Assembly: GCA_009780855.1 (NCBI GenBank)
Contig: WQZG01000010.1
Span: forward strand, 1 to 64,000
From: Treponema sp.
GTDB taxonomy: Bacteria > Spirochaetota > Spirochaetia > Treponematales > Breznakiellaceae
Direction: 5' to 3'
Length of the DNA: 64,000 bases
Numbering within the stretch: the stretch's first letter is position 1; the number at the start of each line of letters is the position of its first letter. The position numbers and the translations under genes are program-made. Under the pieces are notes generated by a model, which worked only from the letters and a program-made list of their open reading frames with translations, did no database searches and had not been told where the DNA came from. Below are positions 17,828 through 51,987 of this stretch, piece by piece.

Positions 17828-17855
17828 TGGTTTATATTATACTATAATATGGAAA

Positions 17856-20660: not shown

Positions 20661-20675
20661 ATCGTATTCTCCTGT

Positions 20676-21863: not shown

Positions 21864-21878
21864 AATACACCGCTGTTA

Positions 21879-23582: not shown

Positions 23583-23743
23583 CTTTATCTCCCTTAAAAA
23601 ATTATATATGGTTTGATGGCTGCAAAATGAATGAATAAAATATCAATTATCAATACACAGAATATTAAATCATTTAAAATTTACATGTGCATACTTAAAA
23701 TTTGATATAACCTGTACTATATTGATATTTATTGGAGAGATAT

Positions 23744-24577
23744 ATGATTACTCTATTAAAATGGCGGCATACCGCAAGCAGAGAATTTTACATTTCTGAA
23801 CGTTCATTTACAGGCCCGTTAACCACGCCTACGCATATGCACGATTTTTATGAATTTCTGATAATTATAGACGGTTCCATGAGCCATATACGTAACGGAA
23901 AAATTTCTTTGCTTGAAAAAAACAGTCTCACCTTGATTTTCCCCGATGATGAACACTTTTATAAGCTTAATCAGGATCAATCTACATTATTTATCAATGT
24001 CGAATTTTCAAGGAAATTGTTTCATAAAGTTGTTTCAGCGCATTCGGCAAGCACGGAATCCAATCAGGAAGTATGGAAAAACAAATCCAAAATCCTGCCG
24101 GCGGCATTGTGCCAGGCCATAAAATCCAGGATTAATTTTTTATTATCTGATGAAATTATCCTGACAGGCATAAATGAACGGAATATTCTGATGGGTATAT
24201 TGTTTGATTGTCTGACATATTTACAAAACAGCAATTCCGATGAACATCAGGCGCCTTTTTAGCTGCTTGAAGCCTGTGAAGCTTTGCAAAAGGAAGAAAC
24301 AGATAATTTGAGAATTGGAAAATTAATATCGCTTACGGGGAAAACACAGGAACATTTAACCCGCACCATGAAGCGTTGTTATAGAATAACACCTTCTGTT
24401 TATATTAACCGTCTTAAATTAAACCGTGCCGCACATTTGATAAAAACAACAGACATGAATATACTGGAAATAATTATATCCTGCGGATTCAACAATGTTT
24501 CATATTTTAACCGGTTATTCAAAAATGAATACGGAATGACTCCGTCCTATATGCGATCCGGCAGTGTAATAATATAA
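23744..24577 (+). pseudogene. AraC-family regulator split by an in-frame TAG stop
   Basis: An AraC/XylS regulator with cupin-like ligand domain (PTHMHDFYEFLIIIDGSM; residues about 25-60) and two helix-turn-helix motifs at the C-terminus (IGKLISLTGKTQEHLTRTMK and ILEIIISCGFNNVSYFNRLF, ending YGMTPSYMR). The frame stays open throughout except for one TAG at 24260-24262; the codons after it continue in the same frame. So this is a nonsense mutation, not a frameshift. The upstream half keeps a good ribosome site (GGAGAG at 23734). The second half could restart at TTG 24284 but with no clear ribosome site. It is divergent from the solute-binding protein operon, its likely target. Confidence 0.85.
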
Positions 24578-29926: not shown

Positions 29927-31327
29927 TTATCTCTTTAACGTGAGCAATTCCTGCAAAAGCTGATCTGCTGTCTGGATAGTTCTCGAATTGACCTGGAATC
30001 CGCGCTGGGTGATTATCATGTCGGTCAGCTGATCGGCCATGTCTACATTGGACATTTCAAGCGCGCCGGCCTGAATTTTACCTTTGCTTGCAATGCCGGA
30101 AGGCCCGATGTTGGCGGCCCCGGAGTTGTTTGTCTGGCGGAATGTGTTGTCGCCGGCTTTTTCAAGACCGCCCTGATTGGTAAAACTGGCTAATGCAACC
30201 TGTCCCAATACCCTGGTCGTTCCGTTGGAAAAGACCCCTGTTATAATTCCTGAGCCGTCGATTTTGAAGTTGTCCATGTAACCCATGGAGTGGCCGTCCT
30301 GGGTCACAGCTTTGGATGAACTGGCCTCCGCAAACTGGGTTATCGAATTAATCGCGCTTCCCACAGTGCCAAGGTGGAGGGCGAAGTTCTGGCGGACCAT
30401 TTCGCCGCCGGCTCCGGGAGTAGCGCTCTGGACATCGTAGGCGACATTCATCGTTACATTGCCGTCAGCGCCGGATTCATTGCCCGCCGCGTCAACCGCG
30501 CTAAGTATGGTCCCGTTATTGCTGAAGTTGACAGTAAACGCAGAAACGCCCCCCGCAGCCGGAGGTTCGGCGCCAAGGCCGGTGGAAGCATTTGTGGGAA
30601 CCGGGTTTTCCGGATCAACGGTTACCGCTACGTTCCAGGAGTTGTTTACGCCCGGCACTTTGGTAAGGGCTGCGCGCAGGGTATGCTCATCGCCGAACGA
30701 ATCGTAAATTTTTATTGAAGTGTTCCAGGTTCCTTCCCTAGCAGCAAGCTCATCGGCGCCTTCCGGAATCTCCGGGAGACGTTTGTCCAGGTTGCAGGCA
30801 AAGTTTACAACCGAAGTTTCCTTTGCCGGATCTTTGGCGCCCACCGGAATTACCAGGTCTTCGACATCCCTTGATACATCAAGGAACTGGGTCCCGTTAA
30901 TATCCTGGGCCATCCAGCCTTGTACTTTCATTCCGTTGGCCGGGTTGACCATGGTTCCATCCTGGTCCAGTCCAAAAGCGCCGGCCCTGGTGTACAGTTT
31001 TGATCCCTTGTCATCCAGTACAAAAAAACCATTGCCGTTTATGGCCAGATCGGTTCCAACGCCGGTAGTCTGGAAAGCGCCCTGGATGTGGATGGTGTCA
31101 ATTGAAGCCACCGACATTCCCAGACCAACTTCCTTGGGGTTAACACCTCCCAGTACATCAGTCGGCTGCGCCGCTCCCTGGAGCTGCTGGTAAAAAATAT
31201 CCTGAAAATTCACGCGGTTCCGTTTGAAACCGGTTGTGTTAATATTGGCAAGGTTATTGCCGATTACATCCATTCTGGTCTGGTGATTCTGAAGTCCGGA
31301 AACACCGGAAAACAAAGATCGCATCAT
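29927..31327 (-). CDS. flgE: FlgE flagellar hook protein
   Basis: 466 residues. The N-terminal rod-type motif is [20 protein letters not shown] with [13 protein letters not shown]; the C-terminus [20 protein letters not shown] ends in LLTLKR. The hook domain lies between. Lys165 and Cys178 (contexts PVGAKDPAK and [11 protein letters not shown]) match the residues that form the inter-subunit lysinoalanine crosslink described for Treponema denticola. GGAG lies about 10 bp upstream of ATG. It overlaps the flgD stop by 4 bp. Confidence 0.96.
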
Positions 31328-31785
31328 AAATTTTGGTCTCCTTCATAATAAACCTTGGTAACCTGATCCCAGTTGTAATAGGAACCGTTGACAAGCACTT
31401 TTGGGGTATCATCCCTCATTACCGCCTGTACGGAACCGTTTATCGTATTGTCTCCGTCCATGATTTCCACCGATCGCCCAAGGGCATTGGTAGCATCCGA
31501 ACCGGACATCATCCTGGCAAGCCTCGAAAAATCCGCCGCCATGTTGGTCATTTGTTCCAGGCTTGAAAACTGTGCCATCTGGGCGACAAATTCCTTGTCT
31601 TCCAGAGGCGCGGTCGGGTCCTGGTTTGCCAGCTGGGTCAGCAGCAGTTTAAGAAATTCATCCCGGCCCATGTCCTGCTGGGGTAATTTTTGATTGTCGC
31701 TTCTTAATTTGGCATTGTAATCGGTAACATTCCGGTTAAGTTCCGCCAAATCATCTGAACTAAGAACTGACTGTATTTGTGCCAT
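31324..31785 (-). CDS. flgD: FlgD hook-capping protein
   Basis: 153 residues. The conserved segment is [20 protein letters not shown] with [19 protein letters not shown]. FlgD caps the growing hook. The start [12 protein letters not shown], after CGGAG, is preferred to an upstream reading that would add 29 residues of displaced fliK sequence. It overlaps flgE by 4 bp and lies 13 bp after the end that fliK would have without its frameshift. Confidence 0.93.
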
Positions 31786-31798
31786 AATTTCTCCGTCT

Positions 31799-32003
31799 TT
31801 AAACAAGAATATTAATCGCCGTTCGTTCTTCCGGATCGGCAAAAACCGCCTGCCGGTCTGTAACGGAATCATAATGGGTTGCAGCAGCTTCCGGTGTTAC
31901 CGCGGAAATAACCCTGTCCGGATTGTCTCCGTTTTGCCCGGCAAACCTGCCAAAATTCCCATTGTCCTGGGTCAGGTTAAGGCTGGTCTCGCTGAAGCCA
32001 GAT
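31799..32003 (-). other. Displaced 3' end of fliK in another frame
   Basis: In the frame one base away from the fliK end, codons read SGFSETSLNLTQDNGNFG and, later, [15 protein letters not shown] and [13 protein letters not shown] before a TAA at 31799-31801. This is what a FliK C-terminus should look like (…FADSGF…), and its stop would lie 13 bp before flgD, in keeping with the tight operon. Either a real one-base deletion or a sequencing error. Confidence 0.8.
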
Positions 32004-34172: not shown

Positions 34173-34490
34173 ATGACCCTTTACCATGGCAGTGATCAAA
34201 TTATTAAAATCCCTGAACTTAACCATTCTGCCAGAACACTGGATTTTGGCCCGGCTGATCTTCAATTCAAGGCAACGCTTGAACTTCTTGTCCCGCTGGT
34301 CATCAGGGAAATAATGAAAGGCAGAAATATCAGCGAACAGGATGCTTTTGAGATATTATATTCATCATTTTTATACAGCAAACTGGAAGTGGAATCTACC
34401 AAACTCTGGCATCTGAGCCAGCTGACCCTCGCAAATTTACTGGACGAAGAACTGCAGACTGGATCAATCACATTCCCCGAGGAAGCATGA
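34173..34490 (+). CDS. Fused remnant: DUF3990 toxin start joined to a small partner protein
   Basis: 105 residues. The first 26 (MTLYHGSDQIIKIPELNHSA, RTLDFG) read like the start of a DUF3990 protein, an ADP-ribosyltransferase-like family that normally continues GxGFYLT. From residue 27 the sequence changes to a small protein of the type found next to DUF3791 genes (LVPLVIREIMKGRNISEQDA, TKLWHLSQLTLANLLDEEL, SITFPEEA). The join looks like an internal deletion that removed most of the toxin. It overlaps the next gene by 4 bp. Family calls are from memory of motifs. Confidence 0.6.
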   Translation: MTLYHGSDQIIKIPELNHSARTLDFGPADLQFKATLELLVPLVIREIMKGRNISEQDAFEILYSSFLYSKLEVESTKLWHLSQLTLANLLDEELQTGSITFPEEA

Positions 34491-34735
34491 TAATGAGCGA
34501 CAATGCAGATTTTATCGCATACTGCCTGGAAGAGTATAAACATGCCAAAGGCATAACAGGTAAAGAAGCAATCATGCTTTTTAAACAGTTTAAAATAATC
34601 GACTATATAGTAAATTGCTACGGCGCCCTGCACACCATGGGCGGGCTTGCCATCACAGAAGACATAGATTCGTTAATTGAAGACATAAAAAACGCGGAAA
34701 AAAAAACCTCTTTTTACACTATTTTCCAAAATTAA
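34487..34735 (+). CDS. DUF3791 family protein
   Basis: 82 residues. DFIAYCLEEYKHAKGITGKE and KIIDYIVNCYGALHTMGG match the DUF3791 family, small proteins commonly encoded beside DUF3990 and thought, by context, to belong to toxin-antitoxin-like loci. ATGA overlap with the previous gene indicates coupling. An A+T-rich inverted repeat follows (34734-34759). Confidence 0.7.
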   Translation: MIMSDNADFIAYCLEEYKHAKGITGKEAIMLFKQFKIIDYIVNCYGALHTMGGLAITEDIDSLIEDIKNAEKKTSFYTIFQN

Positions 34736-39724: not shown

Positions 39725-41959
39725 ATGCCCAGATTAAACCTCAAAAACAGCCTTAACGAGCCGCAGTACAATGCTGTAACCAGCCTGGAAGGGCCGGTCC
39801 TGATCATCGCAGGCGCGGGTTCGGGTAAAACACGGGTTATAACCTACCGCATCGCCCACATGCTGGAAAGGGGAATTCCGCAGTCCGCGATCCTTGCACT
39901 GACATTTACAAACAAGGCCGCAAAGGAAATGGAAACCCGCGTAAAGGAACTGACCGGCAAGAAACTTCAAAGTCTTACGGTAAGCACTTTTCACGCATTT
40001 GGGGTAAAAATTTTAAAGGAAGAAATTGAAACACTGGGTTACAGGAAAAATTTTTCCATTTATGATGAGACAGACAAAACCGAGCTTATCAAGGAATGTC
40101 TGCGCGATATTAAGCATACATCGGACGGCGTTGATCTTTACGCGCTGGGCCAATTGTTTTCAAATATAAAAATCGGCAGGTATGAATGGGGCGCTCCGGA
40201 TTTTTCTGACCCATGGTCATCAGGTATTATCGCCGATTATGTATGGGAACCTGTCTACGACGAATATCAGCGCAGTCTAAAAATATACAACGCCCTGGAC
40301 TTTGACGATCTGTTAACAGTTCCCATAGAACTGTTTGAAAAGAATCCGCAGATACTCGAAAAATACCGCAGCCGTTACCGTTATATTATGGTGGACGAAT
40401 TCCAGGACACAAGTTTTATTCAATATAAACTGATGAAACTTTTAGCACAGCAGGATGCGCAGGCCGGAAAAACCGAAATCACCGGTATGGGTAATTCAAA
40501 CATCTGTGTGGTAGGCGATGATGATCAGTCGATTTATTCATGGCGCGGGGCCAACTACGAAAACCTTATACGGTTTGAAAAAGATTTCCCGGGTACAACA
40601 GAAATAAAACTGGAACAGAACTACCGTTCCACCACAACGATCCTTGAGGCGGCCAACGGTGTAATATCCAACAACACAAACCGAAAAGAAAAACATCTGT
40701 GGACAGGCGGCGGAAGCGGCAAACCCATCGAATTGTTTTATCCGGAAAACGAAAGCGAAGAAGCGGCCTTTATCGCCTCCAGGATTAAGGAAATGCGTTT
40801 TACAGAGAACCTTAAATATGATAACTTCGGCGTACTTGTAAGAACCAATTCCCAGATCGACTGTATCGAAGAAGCTTTTTTGGCGGAGAACATTCCCTGC
40901 AAAGTCTCCGGCGGAACAAGTTTTTTTGAACGCAAGGAAATTAAGGATATACTTTCCTATCTGCACGTAATAGCGAATCCCGACGATGATGTAAATTTAA
41001 TGAGGATAATAAACACACCGCGCAGGGGCATAGGAAAAACATCAATCGCAATGCTGTCTGACATTGCCAAAAAAAACCGGTCCAGTTTGTGGGACAGCCT
41101 GTCGCGTTTAAGCCTTGCCAGGGACCACGGCCAGGATAATCTCTTTGGAAAAAACAAGGGAGAAATAGAAAGTTTTAAAGAACTGATAGAAAACCTGCGC
41201 GAAGATATTATTGGGAAAAAAGATCTCTCATTAAGGGTAAACAGCATGGTTGATACCATCAATTACTGGAGCTACCTGGTAAGCGAGTTCAGCAAGGACG
41301 AAAAAAAAGCAAAATGGAAATTCGGTAACATCAATTATTTAATAGAAATGATCCGTACCTGGGAAAACAATCCGGACAACCTTGAGACCGGCCTTTACGC
41401 CTACTTAAACCGGATAAGCCTTTTGACAAGGGCAGACGGCGATGACAACGCTTCGGACCCGTCAGACCCTTTGTCCATGGGCAAAGTAAACCTGATGACA
41501 ATACACGCGAGCAAGGGCCTTGAATTCCCGGTGGTTTTTATCGCAGGCGCAGAGAGCGGGATTATTCCTCACGAGCGAAGTCTCCAGGACGGTGATGCAG
41601 TTGAAGATGACGAAGCGGAAGACGATGCGGCAGACGGTGATAAGGCCGGCAGTAATACAGCCGGTAACAGTGCGGATGCAGATCCCGCCGCGCCGGGCAG
41701 TCCTTATCAGCAGAGACTGGAAGAAGAAAGGCGGCTTTTTTATGTCGCCATTACCAGGGCCAGAGACAAGCTGTACATCACAAGCTGCCGCAGGCGCAAG
41801 CGGATGCAGTCTGTAACCGAACAGCAGCCCTCCCCTTTTTTAACAGAAATCCCGCAGCACCTGATTGAAAATTACGAAACCGGCGAAGCTGATGACGAGG
41901 AAGCAGCCCAGTCCGCGGCGAAAATGTTCTTTGAGAAAATGAAGGAAAAATACAAATAA
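39725..41959 (+). CDS. UvrD/PcrA-type superfamily 1 DNA helicase
   Basis: 744 residues. Motifs I to VI are all visible: IIAGAGSGKTRVITYRIAHM, TFTNKAAKEMETRV, VDEFQDTSF, VGDDDQSIYSWRGANYENL, LEQNYRSTTTIL, MTIHASKGLEFPVVFIAG and RRLFYVAITRARDKLYI. A 3' to 5' helicase of repair or replication. An Asp/Ala-rich stretch of some 45 residues lies between motifs V and VI (VEDDEAEDDAADGDKAG and onward), which is not typical. The C-terminal tail is short. It starts 9 bp after the CDF gene. Confidence 0.92.
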   Translation: MPRLNLKNSLNEPQYNAVTSLEGPVLIIAGAGSGKTRVITYRIAHMLERGIPQSAILALTFTNKAAKEMETRVKELTGKKLQSLTVSTFHAFGVKILKEEIETLGYRKNFSIYDETDKTELIKECLRDIKHTSDGVDLYALGQLFSNIKIGRYEWGAPDFSDPWSSGIIADYVWEPVYDEYQRSLKIYNALDFDDLLTVPIELFEKNPQILEKYRSRYRYIMVDEFQDTSFIQYKLMKLLAQQDAQAGKTEITGMGNSNICVVGDDDQSIYSWRGANYENLIRFEKDFPGTTEIKLEQNYRSTTTILEAANGVISNNTNRKEKHLWTGGGSGKPIELFYPENESEEAAFIASRIKEMRFTENLKYDNFGVLVRTNSQIDCIEEAFLAENIPCKVSGGTSFFERKEIKDILSYLHVIANPDDDVNLMRIINTPRRGIGKTSIAMLSDIAKKNRSSLWDSLSRLSLARDHGQDNLFGKNKGEIESFKELIENLREDIIGKKDLSLRVNSMVDTINYWSYLVSEFSKDEKKAKWKFGNINYLIEMIRTWENNPDNLETGLYAYLNRISLLTRADGDDNASDPSDPLSMGKVNLMTIHASKGLEFPVVFIAGAESGIIPHERSLQDGDAVEDDEAEDDAADGDKAGSNTAGNSADADPAAPGSPYQQRLEEERRLFYVAITRARDKLYITSCRRRKRMQSVTEQQPSPFLTEIPQHLIENYETGEADDEEAAQSAAKMFFEKMKEKYK

Positions 41960-41977: not shown

Positions 41978-43003
41978 TCACCCCGCTTCTCCGGTTGATC
42001 CCCGCCTGATAAATTCCAGGCCCAGCTTTACCGAGACAGGCGAGCTGATAATTTTTTCCACGCGCGCGTTAATAATTTCTGCACTGAGATAACCAATGGT
42101 CTTAAAATCTATGCGCGCGGTGGTTAGCGGAGGCTGGGCCGCTGCCGCCTGTGCTATATCATAATAACCCATGACCATAACGTCATCCGGAATTTTTGCG
42201 CCGAGAGTTTTTAACCGTTCCATAAAGCCAAGCGCGATCTGATCGTTGTGGCAGATTACAGCGTCAAAATCTACTTTGCCGTATATTTCGTTGGCTATGT
42301 AATAACCGCCGTCAAAACGCGTGTTATTGGCGAAAAATATCTGCTCTTTGCCTGCCAGTCCGCATTCCTGCAGCCCTTTGACATATCCGGCAACCCTCGC
42401 GTACCTGTAAACATCCTCATCATCTTTTTTAACGCTGTAAATAAAAATTATTTTTTTCCTGCCAAGACCCGCAAGGTATTTGACGTACTGTATGTACATA
42501 CCGTAACTGTCGAACGTAATGTTATCATAGGGAAAATCAGAAAAATCCGGATAAAATTTTGTTGACTCATTGAAAGCGAACACTTCGCCTATCTGCACGA
42601 TATTGTCCGTGATCCTGGCTATCCGATCAAAGATCTTTTTGGGGGTCGAGGCTATAATTATTACCCCGTCCAGGTGTCCGTAATTGTTTATCATTTCATC
42701 TTCGTTCATTTTATCGATCTCGGGGGCGGTGCTGTGGAAGCATTTATAATAAGATAATTCGTGGAACCTGTTGGCCGCGTACTGGATTATGTCCGCGAAA
42801 AACGGCTCTTCCATCTGCTCGTGGTAACTGCCGACCAATATACCGTACTTTTTGGTTTTTATTTTTATGCCGTTCTGGATTGCCAGCGAAATGATCTGCT
42901 GCTTTAATTCGTCGCTTATGGAACGCGTATCGCTGCGGCCCAATACCCGCGAAACCGTTGAAATTGAGGTATTCAGGATTTTGGCGATTTCTTTCTGCTT
43001 CAT
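41978..43003 (-). CDS. LacI-family transcriptional regulator of the glycan locus
   Basis: 341 residues. The N-terminal helix-turn-helix is QKEIAKILNTSISTVSRVLG; the sugar-binding core has typical features (RKKIIFIYSVKKDD, YDIAQAAAAQPPLTTARID). The start MKQKEIAKIL follows GGAGGG and is preferred to an upstream reading. Its own promoter is a perfect TTGACA-17-TATAAT (43041-43069 on the minus strand), and a TTTGGGTAAAGT site lies in its leader. The same site recurs beside the permease and solute-binding protein promoters, so it probably controls all three. Confidence 0.9.
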   Translation of the reverse strand: MKQKEIAKILNTSISTVSRVLGRSDTRSISDELKQQIISLAIQNGIKIKTKKYGILVGSYHEQMEEPFFADIIQYAANRFHELSYYKCFHSTAPEIDKMNEDEMINNYGHLDGVIIIASTPKKIFDRIARITDNIVQIGEVFAFNESTKFYPDFSDFPYDNITFDSYGMYIQYVKYLAGLGRKKIIFIYSVKKDDEDVYRYARVAGYVKGLQECGLAGKEQIFFANNTRFDGGYYIANEIYGKVDFDAVICHNDQIALGFMERLKTLGAKIPDDVMVMGYYDIAQAAAAQPPLTTARIDFKTIGYLSAEIINARVEKIISSPVSVKLGLEFIRRGSTGEAG

Positions 43004-43016
43004 TATCCCTCCAAAA

Positions 43017-43028
43017 TTTGGGTAAAGT
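43017..43028. promoter_or_regulatory. LacI operator candidate O1 (lacI leader)
   Basis: TTTGGGTAAAGT on the plus strand, between the lacI promoter and its ribosome site. It matches the copy at 45086 over 12 of 12 bases. Expected to be autoregulatory. Confidence 0.65.
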
Positions 43029-43040
43029 ATTAATAATTTC

Positions 43041-43069
43041 ATTATATTTGTGCATTATTATTATGTCAA
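43041..43069 (-). promoter_or_regulatory. lacI promoter
   Basis: On the minus strand: TTGACA (43064-43069), 17-bp spacer, TATAAT (43041-43046). A perfect sigma-70 consensus, about 38 bp upstream of the lacI start. Confidence 0.8.
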
Positions 43070-43103
43070 TAGACTTTTTTATTGTAAATTCCTAATATTT
43101 TCG

Positions 43104-43132
43104 TTGACATATTGTTTTTCAGGTATTATTAT
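43104..43132 (+). promoter_or_regulatory. Permease operon promoter
   Basis: TTGACA (43104-43109), 17-bp spacer, TATTAT (43127-43132). The hexamers and spacing are identical to those of the promoter at 45162. Divergent from the lacI promoter; an operator follows at 43139. Confidence 0.8.
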
Positions 43133-43138
43133 TTGGAA

Positions 43139-43150
43139 AATATACCCAAA
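43139..43150. promoter_or_regulatory. LacI operator candidate O2
   Basis: AATATACCCAAA, the inverse of TTTGGGTATATT, placed at about +1 to +15 of the permease promoter, a position where a repressor would block transcription. It is in inverted orientation to O1, 122 bp away. Confidence 0.6.
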
Positions 43151-43176
43151 AATAAAACATAAAACCGGAGTTGAAA

Positions 43177-44106
43177 ATGGTATTATCAAATAAATCTTCT
43201 GTTGAAAAATTTTTGCAGTATATGAAGAACAGCTATGTTTTGTATCTGTTCCTGCTGCCGGCTGTAGCATATATTTTCATTTTTAATTACATACCAATGT
43301 ACGGGGTGCAGATTGCCTTTAAAAATTTTAAAGCCGCACGGGGGATATGGGGCAGTCCGTGGGTCGGGCTGGTAAATTTCCAGAAATTTCTTTCTTCGCC
43401 TGATATATGGAATATTTTGGGGAACACTGTAGGTATAAGCCTGTACTCCCTTATTGTTGGTTTTCCGGTTCCGATAATTCTGGCGCTGATGCTCAACTAC
43501 ATAAGGCCGCTTTCGCTCAAGAAAACAATTCAGACTGTATCGTATGCGCCCTTTTTTATATCAACTGTTGTAATCGCCGGCCTGCTATATCTGTTGTTAT
43601 CACCAAATGCCGGTGTGTTAAATTCCTTCAGAAAATCATTCGGATTGGACTCTGTATTTTTTTTGGCACAGCCAAATTTATTTAAAACTATTTATGTTCT
43701 GGCAAATGTATGGCAGAACGCCGGATGGGGATCCATAATTTATATCGCCGCCCTTTCCGGTGTGAGCCAGGAATTGCACGAGGCCGCTATTTCTGACGGC
43801 GCTACAAAACTGCAGAGAATTTGGCATATCGACCTTCCTTCAATTCAACCAACAATAATAATTCTTTTAATATTGAGAATTGGCCAGATAATGAATGTCG
43901 GTTTTGAAATGACTTACCTGCTGCAGAACCCCATGAACATCAACAGCTCTGAAGTTATTGCTACTTATGTTTATAAAGTAGGCCTGCTCAACATACAGTA
44001 CGGGTATGCTGCCGCAGTCGGCCTGTTTAATAATGTTATCAATTTGGCGTTTCTTGTTTTTGCAAACAGGATTGCAAAAAAAGTCACCGAATCAAGTCTT
44101 TGGTAA
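43177..44106 (+). CDS. ABC sugar permease, LplB type
   Basis: 309 residues. Six membrane helices start near KNSYVLYLFLLPAVAYIFIF. The permease loop contacting the ATPase is HEAAISDGATKLQRIWHIDLP. The start at ATG 43177, 7 bp after GGAG, is preferred to a TTG two codons upstream. LplB-type permeases import oligosaccharides. It is followed by a perfect hairpin and the second permease. No ATPase gene lies nearby, as is often seen when a shared MsmX-like ATPase is used. Confidence 0.92.
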   Translation: MVLSNKSSVEKFLQYMKNSYVLYLFLLPAVAYIFIFNYIPMYGVQIAFKNFKAARGIWGSPWVGLVNFQKFLSSPDIWNILGNTVGISLYSLIVGFPVPIILALMLNYIRPLSLKKTIQTVSYAPFFISTVVIAGLLYLLLSPNAGVLNSFRKSFGLDSVFFLAQPNLFKTIYVLANVWQNAGWGSIIYIAALSGVSQELHEAAISDGATKLQRIWHIDLPSIQPTIIILLILRIGQIMNVGFEMTYLLQNPMNINSSEVIATYVYKVGLLNIQYGYAAAVGLFNNVINLAFLVFANRIAKKVTESSLW

Positions 44107-44115
44107 TTCAAGGTA

Positions 44116-44149
44116 GTCTGTACATAATGTGTCTACATTATGTACAGAC
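44116..44149 (+). promoter_or_regulatory. Perfect 14-bp hairpin between the two permease genes
   Basis: GTCTGTACATAATG and CATTATGTACAGAC form a perfect 14-bp stem with the loop TGTCTA, 9 bp after the first permease stop. No T-run follows, so a terminator is unlikely. It may protect or set the relative level of the mRNA, or be a small mobile scar. Confidence 0.8.
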
Positions 44150-44188
44150 ATTGATTAAAAGGTACAGCCCGGGAAATATGGAGATAAA

Positions 44189-45082
44189 ATGAAAAGAATT
44201 AAGCAGACCGGATCAGACCTGGCATTTGATATTGTAAACACATTTTTATTGATACTTGTATTAATTGTAATAATATATCCGCTGTATGTAGTATTGATTT
44301 CGTCGGTAAGCAGCGCACAGGCTGTTAACGCAGGCGAGGTCAGATTCAGACCAGTTGATTTTAGCTGGCAGGGTTATATTCTGATTCTGCAGGGCAGCGA
44401 CATCTGGATCGGTTACCGGAATACGATTCTCTATACATTCTTTGGAACACTGCTTAATCTTACTGTAACGCTTCTTGCAGGTTATTCACTTTCCAGAAAA
44501 GATTTAAAGGGCCGCGGAATTTTTATGGCCTTCTTTGTTTTTACCATGTATTTCAGCGGGGGACTAATACCGACATATATTCTTGTTAACAAAATTGGCC
44601 TGTATAATACGCCGTATGTACTGATAGTAATTGCGGCCATGAGCGTATACAACCTGATAATTGCCAGAACATTTTTCCAGATGACCATACCCCAGGAACT
44701 GTTGGAATCCGCTTTTATGGACGGATGCGGCAATTTCAAATTTTTTATAAAAATTGTTTTACCCCTATCCAGTGCTCTGGTTGCCGTACTTGCGTTATAT
44801 TACGGTCAGGCCCACTGGAACAATTTTTTTAACGCCCTGATCTACCTGTCCAAACGCACCCTGTACCCGCTGCAGTTATTTTTGCGGAATATCCTTGTAA
44901 TGAACCAGAACATTAACATGGAATCGGGCGCCAGTCCGGAAGAAGTGGAAATAAGACTGCAGTACGCGGAAACGATCAAATACGGACTGATTGTACTGGC
45001 TTCTTTCCCGGTTTTGGTCGTGTACCCGTTTTTACAGAAGTATTTTGTAAAGGGAGTCATGATTGGTTCAATCAAAGGATAA
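44189..45082 (+). CDS. ABC sugar permease, LplC type
   Basis: 297 residues with six membrane helices (FLLILVLIVIIYPLYVVLI first). The EAA-type loop is LLESAFMDGCGNFKFFIKIV. The C-terminal YPFLQKYFVKGVMIGSIKG is the hallmark of this class. GGAG lies 6 bp before ATG. It pairs with the 43177 permease as a heterodimer. Confidence 0.92.
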   Translation: MKRIKQTGSDLAFDIVNTFLLILVLIVIIYPLYVVLISSVSSAQAVNAGEVRFRPVDFSWQGYILILQGSDIWIGYRNTILYTFFGTLLNLTVTLLAGYSLSRKDLKGRGIFMAFFVFTMYFSGGLIPTYILVNKIGLYNTPYVLIVIAAMSVYNLIIARTFFQMTIPQELLESAFMDGCGNFKFFIKIVLPLSSALVAVLALYYGQAHWNNFFNALIYLSKRTLYPLQLFLRNILVMNQNINMESGASPEEVEIRLQYAETIKYGLIVLASFPVLVVYPFLQKYFVKGVMIGSIKG

Positions 45083-45085
45083 AAA

Positions 45086-45097
45086 TTTGGGTAAAGT
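45086..45097. promoter_or_regulatory. LacI operator candidate O3
   Basis: TTTGGGTAAAGT, identical over 12 bases to O1, starting 4 bp after the second permease stop and 65 bp before the -35 at 45162. Confidence 0.65.
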
Positions 45098-45161
45098 TTT
45101 CTATTTTTATAGAATATACTGATTAAATTGATTAATTTATAAAAAATTTTATAAAAAATCG

Positions 45162-45190
45162 TTGACAAATAGATAAATGGATGTTATTAT
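45162..45190 (+). promoter_or_regulatory. Promoter of the solute-binding protein operon
   Basis: TTGACA (45162-45167), 17-bp spacer, TATTAT (45185-45190); same hexamers and spacing as the permease promoter. It would drive the SBP and the downstream enzyme genes independently of the permeases. Confidence 0.8.
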
Positions 45191-45205
45191 AAAGCAATTA
45201 GAAAA

Positions 45206-45217
45206 AGTTTACCCAAA
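45206..45217. promoter_or_regulatory. LacI operator candidate O4
   Basis: AGTTTACCCAAA, inverse orientation to O3 and 120 bp from it, just downstream of the -10 at 45185. With O3 it repeats the geometry of the O1/O2 pair. Confidence 0.65.
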
Positions 45218-45254
45218 TAGTGATTTTAGTTATTTTTCTTCCAGGAGGAATAAA

Positions 45255-46898
45255 ATGAAAAAGAAAGACGTTTTTATTACCCTGACAATTTTACTAACAG
45301 TAATGCTTTTAACTCCGTGTTTCGCAGGCGGAGGCGGACAGGCCAATACGGCAGCTGCGCCTGCTAAAATAGGAGCAGATCCTCTTTTTAATCCGACAGG
45401 CGATGTTTTGGCAAAAGAAAAAGTTACTCTGAATTTTGTAGCCTGCAGGCCGGCTAATTTTAGAAATGGCTGGGCGGACATGCAGGTAATCCAGGATCTG
45501 GAGAAAATTACCAATGTCCATATGAACTGGATCGAAATTGAAGAATCTGCCTGGGCAGAAAAAACAAGACTGATGCTGGCGAGTTCCGATTTACCGGACG
45601 CATTTTACAGCTGGCCTATTGCCGACAACGTTGTCCAGGAATACGGCGAACAGGGAATTCTTGTTCCGCTGGAACCCTATATCGACGCTTATGGGTATAA
45701 TATAACAAAAGCCTTTAAAGAACTGCCGGCATTAAGACCTGCCATGACATATCCTGACGGTCATATTTATGCTTTGCCAATGGCAAACATCGGTGAAAAC
45801 GGCGGTAACTATATCTGGATAAACACTGATTGGCTAAAGCAGACAGGTCTGTCAATGCCAAAAACCACAGAAGATTTTTATAATGTACTTAAGGCTTTCA
45901 AGACCCTGCATCCGGATGTAGCGCCGTTTACTTTTACGCAATATACTCCTGCGGGATTACCGCATCTGCAGCAGGGCGCAAATAATCTATTCGGATCTTT
46001 CGGCGTTGTCTATGATGACAGATATTTAATGTGGCAGAACAATACAGTTATTTTCGCTCCGTCCCAGCCTGGCTATCTTGAAGGGCTAAGGTATTTCAAC
46101 AGGCTGTATAAAGAAGGCCTGATTGATCCGGAATCATTCTCCCAAACCATAGAACAAATGCAAGCCAAAACAAGATCTGATTTAAGCAGGGGCGCTACAG
46201 TAAGCCATATGGCGGATTTCATTGTAGATTTGGGCGGCAGAACCGATACAACAATGGAAGAATACAATGCACTAAGATTCCAGCCCATAGCCCCGCTTAT
46301 TGGGCCAAGCGGCGCAGCCCCGATATGGCGCAAGTATATTTCATTCCCGATTGAAAACACAGGACGTTTCATGATAACCAATATAAACAAGCATCCGGAG
46401 ATCTCAATGCGCTGGGTTGATTACAGCTGCGATAACGACGCGCATGCAAACAATTTAAGACTCGGTCCCCAGGGGCTGTTCTGGGATTATATGAATCCGG
46501 AAAAAACAAAGTTCGGCATGATTTATTCAGATAAAATAAATACGAATTTACAGTATAACCCTGTAAATTATTGTGTCTGGTTCTGGCTGCCAAGTTATAA
46601 CACGAAAAATGTCCGTGTTCCGCAGCAGGAAATGCAGTCAATCAATTACGAGAATCTGGTAAAACCATACGCGATAGATAATGTACCATCGGTGAAATTT
46701 ACATCGGATGAAAATAACACAATGTCAGGAATCCGGGTAGATTTATTTAAATATGTTGCAAGTTCTTTTACCAGTTTCATAATGAATGGCGTAACTGACG
46801 CGCAGTGGAACGATTATCTGGCAAAGCTTAAAACATACGGGAGCGATACCTATACACAAATTTACCAGACCGCGGTAAACAGGTCGTTTGGAAAATAA
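45255..46898 (+). CDS. Extracellular sugar-binding protein of the glycan locus
   Basis: 547 residues, LplA-like. Signal FITLTILLTVMLLTPCFAGG; a Cys at about 20 follows LTP, a poor lipobox, so lipidation is uncertain. SBP segments include LASSDLPDAFYSWPIADNVV and TYPDGHIYALPMANIGENGG. AGGAGG is 6 bp before this ATG, which is preferred to one 26 codons upstream. It captures the substrate for the two permeases. Its stop overlaps the next start by one base (TAATG). Confidence 0.92.
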   Translation: MKKKDVFITLTILLTVMLLTPCFAGGGGQANTAAAPAKIGADPLFNPTGDVLAKEKVTLNFVACRPANFRNGWADMQVIQDLEKITNVHMNWIEIEESAWAEKTRLMLASSDLPDAFYSWPIADNVVQEYGEQGILVPLEPYIDAYGYNITKAFKELPALRPAMTYPDGHIYALPMANIGENGGNYIWINTDWLKQTGLSMPKTTEDFYNVLKAFKTLHPDVAPFTFTQYTPAGLPHLQQGANNLFGSFGVVYDDRYLMWQNNTVIFAPSQPGYLEGLRYFNRLYKEGLIDPESFSQTIEQMQAKTRSDLSRGATVSHMADFIVDLGGRTDTTMEEYNALRFQPIAPLIGPSGAAPIWRKYISFPIENTGRFMITNINKHPEISMRWVDYSCDNDAHANNLRLGPQGLFWDYMNPEKTKFGMIYSDKINTNLQYNPVNYCVWFWLPSYNTKNVRVPQQEMQSINYENLVKPYAIDNVPSVKFTSDENNTMSGIRVDLFKYVASSFTSFIMNGVTDAQWNDYLAKLKTYGSDTYTQIYQTAVNRSFGK

Positions 46899-47959
46899 TG
46901 TCGTACAAAGACGGCTGGGCTGCCTTAAAGCTGGAAATGCCGAATCGCGTACCTCGTATGGAATTTTCATTGAATTATCACCATGCGTTGATAAGTGAAA
47001 TTACCGGGACACAGGTAAACGCGGACAGCCCGCCGGAACTGCTAAAAAAAGTTACATATGAGGCAATGAGAAAATGGAATTATGATCTTATCTGGAGAAC
47101 ACTGATAGGCAGGCTATACTTAAACGGTATTGGCACCAGTATGGGACACGCGACTTTTGCGAATAACGGTTCAGACTTCAGAAATGACAAACATTCCACT
47201 TTTTCCGGCGATTTGGAAGAAGTCTATAATTTCCAGCCATTGGAAAAATTAAAGAACATGAGCCATTCAGAAATGGCGGAAATGTTTTCAAAACATTATG
47301 AAGAAAGCTGCGCCGATTATCCTGACGCTGTTAACATGACAGGCACATACGGCACAATTATATCCGGATTGCTTTTCCTCTTTGGCTGGGATTTGCTGCT
47401 TGAAGCGATGGGTACAGATCCCGTACGTTTTGGTGAACTGACAAACAGGTATGCTCAATGGCTGCAGCCGTATTTTAACGCCATGGCTGATTCAACGGCT
47501 GAATGTATAATGGTTCATGATGATATAGTCTGGAGCGCCGGGCCGTTTGCAAATCCTGCCTGGTACAGGGAATATATTTTCCCGAATTACAAAAAATATA
47601 TCGCACCGCTGCTGGATGCCAAAAAAGTCGTGTTGTATACTTCTGACGGTAATTATTCGGTATTTATTGATGATATAGCGAAAACAGGGTTTATGGGTTT
47701 TGTAATGGAACCCTCAACAGATATGGCGTATATAGCGGAAAAATACGGCCGTACACATTCGTTCATCGGCAATGCCGATACGCGGGTACTTATGTTCGGT
47801 TCAAAGCAGGATATATATAATGAGGTAAAACGCTGCATGGATATAGGCAAAAAATATCCGGGCTTTTTTATGGCGGTAGGCAATCATATTTCACCCAACA
47901 CTCCGGTTGAGAATGCGTTATATTACAATGAAGTTTACGAAAAACTGGGAAAGCGATAG
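46898..47959 (+). CDS. UroD-superfamily protein without the zinc-ligand motif
   Basis: 353 residues. It opens SYKDGWAALKLEMPNRVPRM, a variant of the family start. The barrel is recognisable (ECIMVHDDIVWSAGPFANPA; PNYKKYIAPLLDAKKVVLYT), but where relatives have H-x-C-G it reads YTSDGNYSVF, and the C-terminal loop FMAVGNHISPNTPVENA has no cysteine. It is therefore not a zinc-dependent methyltransferase of MtaA type. Translationally coupled to the SBP gene. Function unknown. Confidence 0.75.
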   Translation: MSYKDGWAALKLEMPNRVPRMEFSLNYHHALISEITGTQVNADSPPELLKKVTYEAMRKWNYDLIWRTLIGRLYLNGIGTSMGHATFANNGSDFRNDKHSTFSGDLEEVYNFQPLEKLKNMSHSEMAEMFSKHYEESCADYPDAVNMTGTYGTIISGLLFLFGWDLLLEAMGTDPVRFGELTNRYAQWLQPYFNAMADSTAECIMVHDDIVWSAGPFANPAWYREYIFPNYKKYIAPLLDAKKVVLYTSDGNYSVFIDDIAKTGFMGFVMEPSTDMAYIAEKYGRTHSFIGNADTRVLMFGSKQDIYNEVKRCMDIGKKYPGFFMAVGNHISPNTPVENALYYNEVYEKLGKR

Positions 47960-47962
47960 ACA

Positions 47963-49972
47963 ATGGATGATTTAAGATACAGACAGATTCATCTGGATTT
48001 TCACACATCAGAATTAATCGAAGGGATCGGTTCAAAGTTCAGCAGGGACCAGTTCCAGGAAATGCTTAAACTCGGACATGTGGATTCAATAGTTTTATAT
48101 TCCAAGTGCCATCACGGCTGGGCCTACCATCCGTCAAAAGCAAACCAAATGCACCCGCATCTGGATTTTGATTTACTCGGCGCGCAAATTGAAGCCGCGC
48201 ATGAGATAAACGTAAAAACACCGGTTTATCTTTCTGTCGGGTTTGACGAAAAATTAACGCGAATGCATCCTGAATGGCTGCGGCGCAATAAAGATGAGAG
48301 CATCCCCCACCACCGCGGGAAAGATTTTTTTTCACCGATCTACCACGAGCTCTGCCTCAATTCACCATATTTGGAAATCATCATAGCACAGATCGAAGAA
48401 GTACTGCGTTTATATGACGCAGACGGTCTGTGGCTGGATATTGCTGGTGAAAAATTTTGTTACTGCCAAAATTGTATAAGGAGTCTCATTGCTGAAGGAA
48501 TTGATCCACGTGATGATGAAGCCGTCAGATTGTATGGCAGAAAAATATTCGCAAATTATGCTGACAAGGTAGATAAAATAATTGAAAAAATAAGGCCTGG
48601 ATTGCCTGTTTACCATAACAACGGCCATATAGCGTGCGGCAGGCGCGATGGGATCGCATCTGACACTCATCTGGACCTGGAGACAATTGCTACAGGCTAT
48701 TTTGGATATGACGGTTTTCCAATGTCCGCATCGTATGTACGTACACTGGGCAAGCAATATGCCGGAATTACCGGGAAGTTTCATTTTGTATGGGGCGATA
48801 ACGGCGGATACAAGCATCCCAACACTCTAAGGTATGAAACGGCGCGGCACCTTGTGTACGGAGCGCGCTGCAGTGTTGGTGATCAGCTTCATCCGTACGC
48901 AGATTTGGACAGGGCAACATACACCCTGATTGGCAGCGCATACGCAGAAATTGAACGCAAGGAAGCATGGTGCCGCGATGCCGTTCACCTGGCTGATGCC
49001 GCAATTCTGTCTGCGGATGCAATTTACAATTGCGGTGAACTCCCGAAAAAACTTAAGGATAAATATACTGCAAAAGCCGATATAGGCGCATTTAAAATAA
49101 TGACTGAAGGCAAATATTTATTTGACATGATCGATCAATGGGCAGATTTTTCTCCGTATAAGTTAATCGTAATGCCTGACTATGTCACAGTCAACAGTCA
49201 ACTCGAAAAAAAACTGCATGATTTTCTGGCAGGCGGCGGCAAACTGCTGGCCTCAGGCTATTCCGGACAAACTCCTGATAGCGGTTATGCGCTTGATTTC
49301 GGCGCTGAAATTCTCGGTGACAATGAATATACGCCGGATTATATACATCCGCTGTTTGAGCTGCCCTGTTTTGAAGATGCGGCTTTTGTTATGTATCTGC
49401 AGGGCCAAAAAATAAAGCTCACTGACGGTAAGGAACTTGCATACCGCGAGAATCCGTTTTTCAACCGCGATGCCTTTCATTTCAGTGCGCATTTCCACAC
49501 CGTAAGCAGCAGGCTGAAAGCCGGGCCGGGAATGGTTCAGGGCAAAGACGGAATTTACATAGCATGGAAAATATTCAGTGAATATGCAGAAAAAGGTTCG
49601 ATGATTTCCAAACTTGTTGTATTGCACGCGCTGGATCTTCTTTTGGGCGATCAAAAAACACTGCGTACATCACTGCCGGTACAAGGTACTGTCGCGCTGA
49701 CTTATCAGAAAAAAGAAAACCGTTATGTGAACCATGTACTATACGGGGCTCCGGTGAAACGCGGCGATATAGGCGTCATCGAAGACAGCTTACCAATTTA
49801 CAATATCAAAATGCGAATATTAATAGATAAACCTGCAAAGAGCGTAAAACTCGTACCGCAGAATATCCCGCTTGAATTTACATGCAATCTAAAAGATTCA
49901 AAATACGAAATTGAATATGTCATACCGGAATTCGAATGTCACCAGATGACAGAGATTACAGCAGCGGGATAG
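47963..49972 (+). CDS. GHL6/GH151-like glycosidase, possible alpha-L-fucosidase
   Basis: 669 residues. The N-terminal barrel (LGHVDSIVLYSKCHHGWAYH, LSVGFDEKLTRMHPEWL, YDADGLWLDIAGEKFCYCQN) resembles the GHL6 family, which includes the GH151 alpha-L-fucosidases. The middle third (KLIVMPDYVTVNSQLEKKL, GGGKLLASGYSG) is a beta-galactosidase-trimerisation-type domain. A C-terminal beta domain follows. A likely catalytic Asp is in GLWLDIAG. No signal peptide. The specificity is not certain. It starts 3 bp after the UroD gene. Confidence 0.7.
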   Translation: MDDLRYRQIHLDFHTSELIEGIGSKFSRDQFQEMLKLGHVDSIVLYSKCHHGWAYHPSKANQMHPHLDFDLLGAQIEAAHEINVKTPVYLSVGFDEKLTRMHPEWLRRNKDESIPHHRGKDFFSPIYHELCLNSPYLEIIIAQIEEVLRLYDADGLWLDIAGEKFCYCQNCIRSLIAEGIDPRDDEAVRLYGRKIFANYADKVDKIIEKIRPGLPVYHNNGHIACGRRDGIASDTHLDLETIATGYFGYDGFPMSASYVRTLGKQYAGITGKFHFVWGDNGGYKHPNTLRYETARHLVYGARCSVGDQLHPYADLDRATYTLIGSAYAEIERKEAWCRDAVHLADAAILSADAIYNCGELPKKLKDKYTAKADIGAFKIMTEGKYLFDMIDQWADFSPYKLIVMPDYVTVNSQLEKKLHDFLAGGGKLLASGYSGQTPDSGYALDFGAEILGDNEYTPDYIHPLFELPCFEDAAFVMYLQGQKIKLTDGKELAYRENPFFNRDAFHFSAHFHTVSSRLKAGPGMVQGKDGIYIAWKIFSEYAEKGSMISKLVVLHALDLLLGDQKTLRTSLPVQGTVALTYQKKENRYVNHVLYGAPVKRGDIGVIEDSLPIYNIKMRILIDKPAKSVKLVPQNIPLEFTCNLKDSKYEIEYVIPEFECHQMTEITAAG

Positions 49973-49980
49973 TTTTACAA

Positions 49981-50994
49981 ATGACCAAACGCGAATATGT
50001 TTTAAGCACAATAAAGCACCGCGAAGGCGACAAAGTACCGTACTGCATACAAATTTCAGAAAAGGCCATAAACCTTTACGGGAATAAATTGCTGCAAGAC
50101 TTTAATAATAAAGAAGTTCAGGACGATCTAAAACAGGGTAATATTAATTATAAAGAAGCAATCAATTTTTCAATCGGCAATTATATGACTTTAATCCCCG
50201 CGCATTGGTGGCAATGGGATTATAAAAATACAAGCCCAATATATAAAGATCCCGAAAGTACACCGGATGTAATGCCCGCAATAATACGCGAAGATACCGC
50301 AGAAAATTTCGAGGAATATAATGAACATACAAAATGGATTGCGGAAAAATATCAAACATATATTGTATCGTTAATTTACGGCAGTCATTTTGAAAAGGCC
50401 AATTTTATAAGGGGTATCGAAAATTTTTTGGCAGACATGGGGAATTCACCGGAGTTCGCAAAAAAATTTTTAACTTTCATCATTGATTTGAATATGGAAA
50501 TACTCCCCAAAATTGTTAAAAATAAATACATAGATGCTGTATTATTGGGAAGCGACTGGGGCACCCAGAATGATCTGATTATGTCGCCGCAAACCTGGAA
50601 TGAATTGATCATGCCCGGCGAAGAAAGGGAATACGCCATTATCAAAGCTGCAGGAAAACATATTATTATCCATTCATGCGGCTGCATACTGCGTATAATT
50701 CCTAATCTGATCGAAATGGGAGTTGATATTTTAAATCCTGTCCAGTCTGAATGTATGGATTTAAATTTATTAAAAGAAACTTACGGCAGTAAATTGACAT
50801 ATTGGGGAGGAATTTCTACCCAAAAGACCCTGCCCTACGGTACGCCGCATGATGTAATCAGGGAAACTGAACAGGTTATTAAATTAATGTCCAGAAACGG
50901 CGGATACATAACATGTCCTTCTCAGGTAATTCAGGAAGATGTGCCTTACGAAAATCTCAAGGCTCTGATTGAAACGGTAAGGCATTACGGTTAA
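49981..50994 (+). CDS. UroD-superfamily protein with intact zinc-site motif
   Basis: 337 residues. It opens TKREYVLSTIKHREGDKVPY. HSCGC is near residue 231 (IIIHSCGCILRIIPNLIEMG), followed by ILNPVQSECMDLN, YWGGISTQKTLPYGTPHDV, and a cysteine in GGYITCPSQVIQED near 311. This arrangement matches an H-x-C ... C zinc site. It is closest in these motifs to the 481-1737 protein. An upstream in-frame ATG at 49936 lies inside the preceding gene and is not used. No strong ribosome site. Confidence 0.8.
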   Translation: MTKREYVLSTIKHREGDKVPYCIQISEKAINLYGNKLLQDFNNKEVQDDLKQGNINYKEAINFSIGNYMTLIPAHWWQWDYKNTSPIYKDPESTPDVMPAIIREDTAENFEEYNEHTKWIAEKYQTYIVSLIYGSHFEKANFIRGIENFLADMGNSPEFAKKFLTFIIDLNMEILPKIVKNKYIDAVLLGSDWGTQNDLIMSPQTWNELIMPGEEREYAIIKAAGKHIIIHSCGCILRIIPNLIEMGVDILNPVQSECMDLNLLKETYGSKLTYWGGISTQKTLPYGTPHDVIRETEQVIKLMSRNGGYITCPSQVIQEDVPYENLKALIETVRHYG

Positions 50995-51015
50995 TTTATT
51001 TATGGAGAGGAGACA

Positions 51016-51987
51016 ATGACTGGCAAAGAAAAAATCATCAGAGCTCTCAAGCATCAGCCGATAAAAGGCCATGTGCCGCATTTTGAATTTCAGTTTTTTT
51101 TAACAATGGAAAAGTTCGGCAAAATTCATCCGCGTTATATTAATCTGCATAAATGGGGCCAGATGAGCGTAAGGGAAAAAGAGATGCAGCTTCAGTATGT
51201 GGCCGATGTTTATCTGGAGACAGCCGGAACCTACGATTATAGTGCAATTTCGGTAAATTTTGATGTTTCCGTTGAAAGCCAAAGCGATAGCAATGATGCG
51301 ATTCACAGGCTGTTTGAAATAATCCGCGAACGTTCCGGAGACCAATATTTTATTATTATCCCGGGAGATGCTACATACGGTATTCCAAACGGCAGCGATA
51401 TGACTGAATTTTCGGCGCACATGTATGATGAACCGGAAAAAATGTGCGAACAGGCGCAGCGCCAGGTTGATCAGAGGCTTGAGGATATCCGCAAATTAAG
51501 GGCAGAAGGCCTTATTGACGGCATCAATCTCAACTCAGATTACTGCTTCAACACCAATTCTTTTTTCCCGCCTGATATCTTCAGTGTTCTTGTTGCTCCG
51601 TATCTAAAGCAGCTGGTTGATGCGTATCACAGCATGGGTTTTTACACAATTAAACACACTGACGGGAACATTATGCCCATTATTGATCAGATAGCTGCCA
51701 GCGGCACTGACGGACTTCAGTCTATCGATCCGCAGGGCGGCGTTGATTTGAAAACTGTAAAAAAATTGTACGGCGATAAATTATGCCTGATGGGCAACGT
51801 TAATTGCGGCCTGCTGCAGACCGGCACCGATGAAGAAGTGCGCCAGGATGTACTGCGATCCCTGCGCGACGGTATGCCCGGTTACGGCTACATTTTCTCC
51901 ACATCGAATGTGGTATATCCGGGAATGCCGCTGCAGCGGTACGAACTGATGCACAGTATCTGGAAAGAACACGGAGTTTATAAATGA
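51016..51987 (+). CDS. UroD-superfamily protein with HTDG in place of HxCG
   Basis: 323 residues, opening TGKEKIIRALKHQPIKGHVP after AGGAG. The metal-site region reads TIKHTDGNIMPIIDQI: His kept, Cys replaced by Asp. The C-terminal loop YIFSTSNVVYPGMPLQRY lacks the cysteine. SIDPQGGVDLKTVKKLYG and KLCLMGNVNCGLLQTGT are the family segments. It may bind another metal or none. Overlaps GH38 by 4 bp. Confidence 0.78.
   Translation: MTGKEKIIRALKHQPIKGHVPHFEFQFFLTMEKFGKIHPRYINLHKWGQMSVREKEMQLQYVADVYLETAGTYDYSAISVNFDVSVESQSDSNDAIHRLFEIIRERSGDQYFIIIPGDATYGIPNGSDMTEFSAHMYDEPEKMCEQAQRQVDQRLEDIRKLRAEGLIDGINLNSDYCFNTNSFFPPDIFSVLVAPYLKQLVDAYHSMGFYTIKHTDGNIMPIIDQIAASGTDGLQSIDPQGGVDLKTVKKLYGDKLCLMGNVNCGLLQTGTDEEVRQDVLRSLRDGMPGYGYIFSTSNVVYPGMPLQRYELMHSIWKEHGVYK

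What the first reader, a model, noticed from the sequence alone, without database searches (positions are those of the whole stretch)
43017..45217. Two matched operator-promoter modules suggest LacI loops
TTTGGGTA-type sites occur at 43017, 43139, 45086 and 45206. They form two pairs, each with one direct and one inverted copy, 122 and 120 bp apart. Each pair brackets a promoter with hexamers TTGACA and TATTAT and a 17-bp spacer, and the first also brackets the perfect lacI promoter on the other strand. The symmetrical layout fits tetrameric or loop-forming LacI repression of three promoters. The motif lacks the central CpG common in LacI operators.
Basis: partly seen in the sequence, partly recalled or inferred. 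Interest (0 to 1): 0.6.

Follow-up and report, generated by a model that had tools for sequence, protein, structure and literature searches.

The report
Paired operators of an unusual LacI repressor
In a spirochaete genome, four copies of a short DNA word sit in two mirror-image pairs around three sugar-uptake promoters, most likely landing sites for the neighbouring LacI-type repressor, which has lost the hinge that relatives use to grip a central CG; the proposed DNA looping is plausible but unproven.

Summary
TTTGGGTA occurs at 43017 and 45086 (+) and at 43143 and 45210 (-); start-to-start spacings are 126 and 124 bp (reader: 122 and 120). The inverted pair occurs only here in the 3.97-Mb genome, and 0 of 5000 dinucleotide shuffles gave a comparable shared pair with at least 3 G/C. 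Three strong promoters each carry the word just downstream (about +3 to +21), in the same orientation. The copy at 45086 faces no promoter that the scan found.

Best reading: a local, self-regulating LacI-family repressor. The missing CpG has a likely reason: this LacI has lost the hinge helix and carries the two-residue insertion before helix 3 seen in E. coli EbgR; EbgR-like proteins are reported to have CpG-less operators (PMC2329647). But the word is not that subfamily's TTTASTAAA, and relatives gave no footprint.

A lac-type tetramer is not supported: the C-terminal tail of E. coli LacI is missing. Looping by dimer-dimer contact is inferred. Among 44 of 49 window proteins scanned, the only other regulator named is a FliA-like sigma factor.

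The parts
41978..43003 (-). lacI-family regulator gene (341 aa): HTH with a two-residue insertion before helix 3, no hinge helix, sugar-sensor domain, no C-terminal tetramerisation tail; GGAGGG lies 4-9 bases before the chosen ATG
   Evidence: Pfam and NCBIfam; alignments; sequence
43017..43026 (+). operator O1 (TTTGGGTAAA), proximal operator of the lacI promoter, about +9 to +18
43041..43069 (-). lacI promoter, TTGACA-17-TATAAT (12 of 12)
43104..43132 (+). permease promoter, TTGACA-17-TATTAT (11 of 12)
43141..43150 (-). operator O2 (TTTGGGTATA, the weakest of the four), proximal operator of the permease promoter, about +3 to +12
43177..44106 (+). ABC sugar-transporter permease 1 (BPD_transp_1); the start shown is the ATG at 43177, with GGAG at 43167-43170
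   Evidence: sequence
44189..45082 (+). ABC sugar-transporter permease 2
   Evidence: 24.8 bits, below the Pfam cut-off of 26.4; UgpE- and GlcU-like, far below those cut-offs
45086..45095 (+). operator O3 (TTTGGGTAAA), directly after the permease 2 stop (3 bases between); no promoter found facing it; putative auxiliary operator
45162..45190 (+). solute-binding-protein promoter, TTGACA-17-TATTAT (11 of 12, TG before the second hexamer)
45208..45217 (-). operator O4 (TTTGGGTAAA), proximal operator of the solute-binding-protein promoter, about +12 to +21
45255..46898 (+). extracellular solute-binding protein; start shown is the ATG at 45255, with AGGAGG at 45243-45248
   Evidence: SBP_bac_8; sequence

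Best explanation
A hinge-less, EbgR-like LacI-family repressor encoded at 41978-43003 binds TTTGGGTAWA operators and represses its own gene, the two-permease operon and the solute-binding-protein gene until a sugar ligand releases it. Each promoter has one proximal operator just downstream of its start, in the same orientation relative to transcription; O3, centred 122 bp upstream of O4, acts as an auxiliary operator. O1 with O2 and O3 with O4 may cooperate through dimer-dimer contact (as GalR dimers do, recalled) that closes a loop of about 12 helical turns over the promoters; the loop by itself I put at about 0.45. Shown: sites, promoter matches, protein anatomy and the uniqueness of the arrangement in the genome. 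Inferred: binding, repression, the ligand and the loop.
For: Inverted pair found at two places in the genome, both here, control 0; not reproduced by shuffles. An operator at +3 to +21 of all three promoters, same orientation. The lacI gene is divergent and adjacent. Of 49 non-overlapping window frames of 120 aa or more, 44 were scanned with Pfam; the only other regulator named is a FliA-like sigma factor at 5940-6749. The lost hinge and the HTH insertion match the published link between EbgR-like proteins and CpG-less operators (PMC2329647, passages read). The E. coli ebg region carries three TTTASTAAA words, upstream of ebgR and ebgA, and an EbgR-like gene in the same order has TTTAGTAAA upstream (L085).
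Against: No regulator close enough for footprinting: the best match by E-value outside the genome is 28% identical, and the genome-contig scan found none. The pair in relatives is at chance: 6 of 194 other family genomes against 7 of 194 with a control hit. The site is not the EbgR-like odd palindrome, and O2 departs from the 16-base consensus at 4 places. Overall identity to E. coli EbgR is 20.1%, about the same as to LacI, 19.0%, so the subfamily assignment rests on the HTH and hinge only; E. coli EbgR itself keeps ARKL in the hinge. The scans used E 1e-5, so a weakly matching regulator could be missed; 7 of those 30 proteins had no family. No direct test of binding or looping.
Confidence: 0.6

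Rival explanations
1. Same repressor, no loop: each proximal operator blocks its own promoter by itself. The O1-O2 distance follows from two divergent promoters packed back to back, and O3 is a road-block for read-through from the permease genes or a relic.
For: Each promoter has its own operator in the same orientation; no tetramerisation tail; published intersite distances for LacI regulators peak at 13, 22 and 32 bp, not near 120 (PMC4052901 section 9).
Against: O3 has no facing promoter in the scan, matches O4 in 15 of 16 bases, and lies at nearly the same distance as O1-O2.
Confidence: 0.3
2. Another regulator, encoded elsewhere, binds the non-palindromic word, for example an AraC-type protein of the kind that may sit beside some paralogous transporters.
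For: The word is strongly asymmetric: O1, O3 and O4 share the TTTGGGTAAA side and have no matching right half. Large open frames with hydrophobic starts lie next to paralogous permeases in L069, L071, L072 and L080 (first 40 residues seen); that such frames are AraC-type is recalled, not tested.
Against: No such family was named among 44 of 49 window proteins scanned; the pair is confined to the LacI locus, and none of 14 paralogous transporter loci examined shows it (14 of 114 first-look candidates, some cut by contig ends).
Confidence: 0.1
3. O3 and O4 act in RNA: a read-through transcript from the permeases folds the two arms into a long stem that separates or stabilises the messages.
For: The O3-O4 intergenic RNA folds at -31 kcal/mol, z -2.63, 2 of 200 shuffles at least as stable, with the arms paired.
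Against: Any long inverted repeat does this; O1 and O2 would not lie in one transcript from the promoters found, so the first pair is unexplained.
Confidence: 0.06

Closest known systems
EbgR-like LacI-family regulators (LacR, GalR and RafR of Lactobacillus plantarum; E. coli EbgR)
   Same: Insertion before helix 3; hinge without the conserved A and L (as reported for the L. plantarum group, PMC2329647 passages); operators without a central CpG; sugar genes as targets.
   Different: Hinge wholly missing here, whereas E. coli EbgR still has ARKL; operator TTTGGGTAAA, not the odd palindrome TTTASTAAA; only 20.1% identity to E. coli EbgR.
E. coli GalR / gal operon
   Same: Dimeric repressor with two operators about 11 turns apart that bracket promoters and loop (recalled; of PMC4693257 only the search listing was seen).
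   Different: gal operators are palindromes with a central CG (recalled); here asymmetric, CpG-less words, and looping is untested.
E. coli LacI / lac operon
   Same: LacI-family sensor domain and repressor logic with an auxiliary operator (lac details recalled).
   Different: No C-terminal tail and no hinge helix in the window protein; sites without CpG.

Membership tests
LacI/GalR family | N-terminal LacI HTH plus periplasmic-binding-protein-like sensor domain | tested here: met
   Peripla_BP_3 1.1e-23 and Peripla_BP_1 5.3e-15 above cut-off; LacI HTH 0.00048, 20.3 bits, below its cut-off of 27; near-full-length matches to RbsR, PurR and CytR models, all far below their cut-offs
LacI/GalR family | Hinge helix with conserved A and L that inserts in a central CG | tested here: not met
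   37 letters from residue 21 to 57 against a mode of 45; shorter than all 35 homologue rows that align there (36 rows, L038 does not align; next shortest 42); low-confidence model shows coil at 44-52 (mean pLDDT 43, weak)
LacI/GalR family | Palindromic operator, usually with central CG | tested here: not met
   TTTGGGTAAA is at best TTT-N4-AAA; no CpG in the four 36-base stretches around the sites; 1173 of 1303 published regulators have the CG (PMC4052901 section 9)
EbgR-like subfamily | Insertion before helix 3 | tested here: met
   10 residues in the turn, as in L085, L092, L093 and L097, against 8 in most of the 36 rows; no gap against E. coli EbgR there
EbgR-like subfamily | No conserved A and L in the hinge | tested here: met
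   the region is deleted; note that E. coli EbgR itself keeps ARKL
EbgR-like subfamily | Odd palindromic operator with single central C or G (TTTASTAAA) | tested here: not met
   0 TTTASTAAA in the window; sites are TTTGGGTAWA
Tetrameric loop-forming LacI (lac type) | C-terminal tetramerisation tail (its leucine-heptad nature recalled) | tested here: not met
   window protein ends ...FIRRGSTGEAG where the core ends; E. coli LacI runs on for about 27 residues
Loop-forming repressor | Two distant sites bridged, helical-phase dependence | not testable with these tools
   centre spacings 124 and 122 bp, 11.8 and 11.6 turns at 10.5 bp; needs an experiment

The most novel reading that the evidence does not exclude
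A LacI-family dimer that, freed by the loss of its hinge helix, no longer reads one palindrome with two touching heads. Each head grips one asymmetric TTTGGGTA half-site, and a single dimer bridges two inverted half-sites about 12 turns apart, as AraC bridges half-sites (recalled): this would account for non-palindromic sites, inverted orientation and matched spacing.
Probability: 0.07. Interest if true: 0.65.

Novelty: new variant of a known kind. Interest (0 to 1): 0.3.

Why it matters
LacI-family operator prediction largely assumes a palindrome with a central CpG read by the hinge helix. A member with the hinge deleted and a CpG-less, asymmetric operator in two matched pairs would be a natural test of how such proteins recognise DNA and whether they still loop. 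If confirmed, it also shows that operator scans built on the CpG rule would miss this regulon.

Tried and rejected
Close relatives for phylogenetic footprinting: none. A 63-residue N-terminal piece matched 17 of 389 other genomes of the order, best E 4.9e-5; aligned with 19 homologues, none of these has lost the hinge. The pair in other genomes: 7 of 195 family genomes had a match including the window's own; the other 6 are at the level of the 7 genomes with a control hit. Of 43 stretches in genome contigs with the stricter pair plus 6, none holds a frame of 80 aa or more that matches LacI or EbgR at E up to 10 (stretches of 2.2 to 8 kb, so a regulator further away would be missed). No chance expectation was computed; I take these as chance. 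One Treponema stretch (L151) equals L045 over the 1100 bases compared.

A wider regulon: the 16-base consensus with up to 3 mismatches gave 152 places against 161 for the backwards control, no enrichment. Only three places have 0 or 1 mismatch, all in the window, but the consensus was made from them; O2 has 4 mismatches by my count and so is not in that list. 27 of the 30 TTTGGGTAAA outside the window lie in stop-to-stop frames of 100 aa or more (29 places, one). This is a loose test that the window's own sites also partly meet: O1 and O4 lie in upstream extensions of the lacI and binding-protein frames and O3 in a 108-aa minus-strand frame. I call them intergenic because ribosome-binding-site-like words precede the later starts. 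Fourteen paralogous transporter loci have scattered single words, one about 160 bases before a permease frame in L077 and one at a permease frame start in L081, but no pair.

Module duplication: similarity of the two regions including the operators exceeds shuffles on opposite strands (score 41, 0 of 1000), but between the operators it does not (227 of 1000 reach it). Recent duplication rejected.

Single-sequence structure model: too poor to use. A search for papers on Treponema, termite and LacI operators gave nothing that looked relevant in the 10 of 35 listed.

Corrected on checking: the number of window proteins scanned (44, not 46), the mismatches of O2 (4, not 3) and the weight of the coding-frame comparison.

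Full report
The sites. The window holds TTTGGGTA at 43017 and 45086 on the plus strand and at 43143-43150 and 45210-45217 on the minus strand. Extended, O1, O3 and O4 read ATTTGGGTAAASTWTT; O2 is weaker, TTTGGGTATA, with 4 departures from the 16-base consensus by my count. O3 and O4 form a 16-base inverted repeat, 94% complementary. No CpG lies in the four 36-base stretches printed.

Chance. TTTGGGTA occurs 8 times in the window against 2.86 expected. TTTGGGTAAA occurs 33 times in the genome against 17 for the backwards control. The inverted pair with 100-130 bases between occurs at two places in the genome, both here, and 0 times for the control. In dinucleotide shuffles of the two intergenic regions a shared inverted 8-mer pair arose in 14 of 5000, with matching spacing in 1 of those, and with three or more G/C in 0 of another 5000. 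Whether the sites are intergenic depends on the starts chosen: the longest frames of lacI and of the binding protein run over O1 and O4, but GGAGGG and AGGAGG lie just before the later ATGs at 43003 and 45255.

Promoters. It lists 9 promoter-like sites where 7.3 are expected in shuffles, so only the high scorers carry weight; a fourth, 10 of 12 with TG, lies on the minus strand at 43088-43060 and could be a second lacI promoter. With a start assumed 7 bases after the second hexamer, the proximal operators lie at +9 to +18 (lacI), +3 to +12 (permease) and +12 to +21 (binding protein), all in the same orientation to transcription. Thus the inverted layout of the first pair follows from two divergent promoters each with its own operator. 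O3, just after the permease 2 stop, has no facing promoter in the scan and is the best single hint of an auxiliary, loop-forming operator.

The regulator. Protein 41978-43003 is LacI-family by its sensor domain, with an HTH match below the Pfam cut-off. It was aligned with 36 homologue rows: 19 and 17, one gene present twice and one row, L038, not alignable there. It has 37 letters from residue 21 to 57 against a mode of 45, although it carries two extra residues in the turn before helix 3: the hinge helix is gone. The frame through the gap is open, and I judge a loss of about ten codons not to be a sequencing slip. E. coli EbgR has the same insertion length but keeps ARKL in the hinge. E. coli LacI lacks the insertion, keeps a hinge (PNRVAQQL) and has a C-terminal tail that the window protein lacks (the E. 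coli LacI used there lacked its first few residues). A single-sequence AlphaFold model has no helix at residues 44-52 but is of low confidence.

Link to print. Francke et al. (PMC2329647; passages seen) report that EbgR-like regulators have an insertion before helix 3, seem to lack the conserved hinge alanine and leucine, and have operators with a single central C or G (TTTASTAAA) in place of CG. Ravcheev et al. (PMC4052901; abstract and section 9 read) count 1173 of 1303 regulators with a central CG and 4% with odd palindromes, and intersite peaks at 13, 22 and 32 bp. Camas et al. (PMC2978694; abstract, section 6 and passages) tie the hinge leucine to the central CG. I saw TTTASTAAA directly in the E. 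coli ebg region at three places (195 bases before ebgR; 88 and 76 before ebgA), and TTTAGTAAA in a same-order EbgR-like locus, L085. The window has none. A half-site reading (CCAAA and GTAAA back to back, one base further apart than in TTTASTAAA) is my inference.

Relatives. The nearest homologue by E-value outside the genome is 28% identical; the genome-contig scan, which reaches close relatives only, found none. The pair in 194 other family genomes is at control level, 6 against 7, and 43 stretches found in genome contigs have no LacI-like frame of 80 aa or more within the DNA held. So there is no comparative support for the sites, only their internal repetition and position. That the host is a spirochaete rests on one link: genome G153, of the window's own family, holds a stretch identical over 1100 bases to a record titled Treponema sp..

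Setting. The transporter genes are followed by three URO-D-family proteins, a GHL6 protein, a GH38 mannosidase, two sulfatases and a GH4 enzyme, on the plus strand up to 58977, which suggests uptake and breakdown of a sulfated or mannose-bearing glycan; the ligand is not known. Permease paralogues are abundant in the genome (114 first-look candidates, 15 scored); the 14 scored ones besides the window's own were fetched, and none shows such a pair. Of 49 non-overlapping window frames of 120 aa or more, 44 were scanned with Pfam: 8, 6 and 30 (these last at E 1e-5; 7 of the 30 had no family). Not scanned were 3649-4026, 23732-24259, 31327-31872, 34265-34633 and 39725-41956. The only regulator named besides LacI is a FliA-like sigma factor at 5940-6749.

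Verdict. Repressor control of the three promoters by the adjacent, hinge-less LacI protein is likely (about 0.8 for that part alone); the fuller account with an auxiliary operator I put at 0.6, a loop by itself at about 0.45, and a lac-type tetramer as unlikely. The regulator and its sites look like a variant of the known EbgR-like kind.

Noticed in passing
window 16088-23582: A carbohydrate cluster (apiosidase-like, GH38 mannosidase, URO-D family and a protein without a Pfam match) lies inside the flagellar gene run, between FliO (15259-15990) and a FliN-like gene (25193-26383).
   Followed up: no
window 46898-51987: Three URO-D-family genes (46898-47959, 49936-50994, 51016-51987) in a sugar-uptake cluster, the first two weakly MtaA-like, with further URO-D copies at 484-1800 and 20679-21863; role unknown.
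   Followed up: no
G000, whole genome: Very many paralogues of the sugar-transporter permease (114 first-look candidates, 15 scored), in several loci next to large open frames with hydrophobic starts and sulfatase-looking frames (the latter judged by eye from 40 residues).
   Followed up: partly
L007, L110, L115: Three of the genome's TTTGGGTAAA words lie in minus-strand open frames of the same length, 171 aa, perhaps a repeated gene.
   Followed up: no
L085 around 1262 and 1436: A same-order EbgR-like gene has TTTAGTAAA and TATAGTAAA words upstream, 174 bases apart; what lies on the other side was not tested.
   Followed up: partly
window 43060-43088: A second promoter-like match on the minus strand (TTTACA-17-CATAAT, 10 of 12, TG before the second hexamer), upstream of the perfect lacI promoter.
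   Followed up: no
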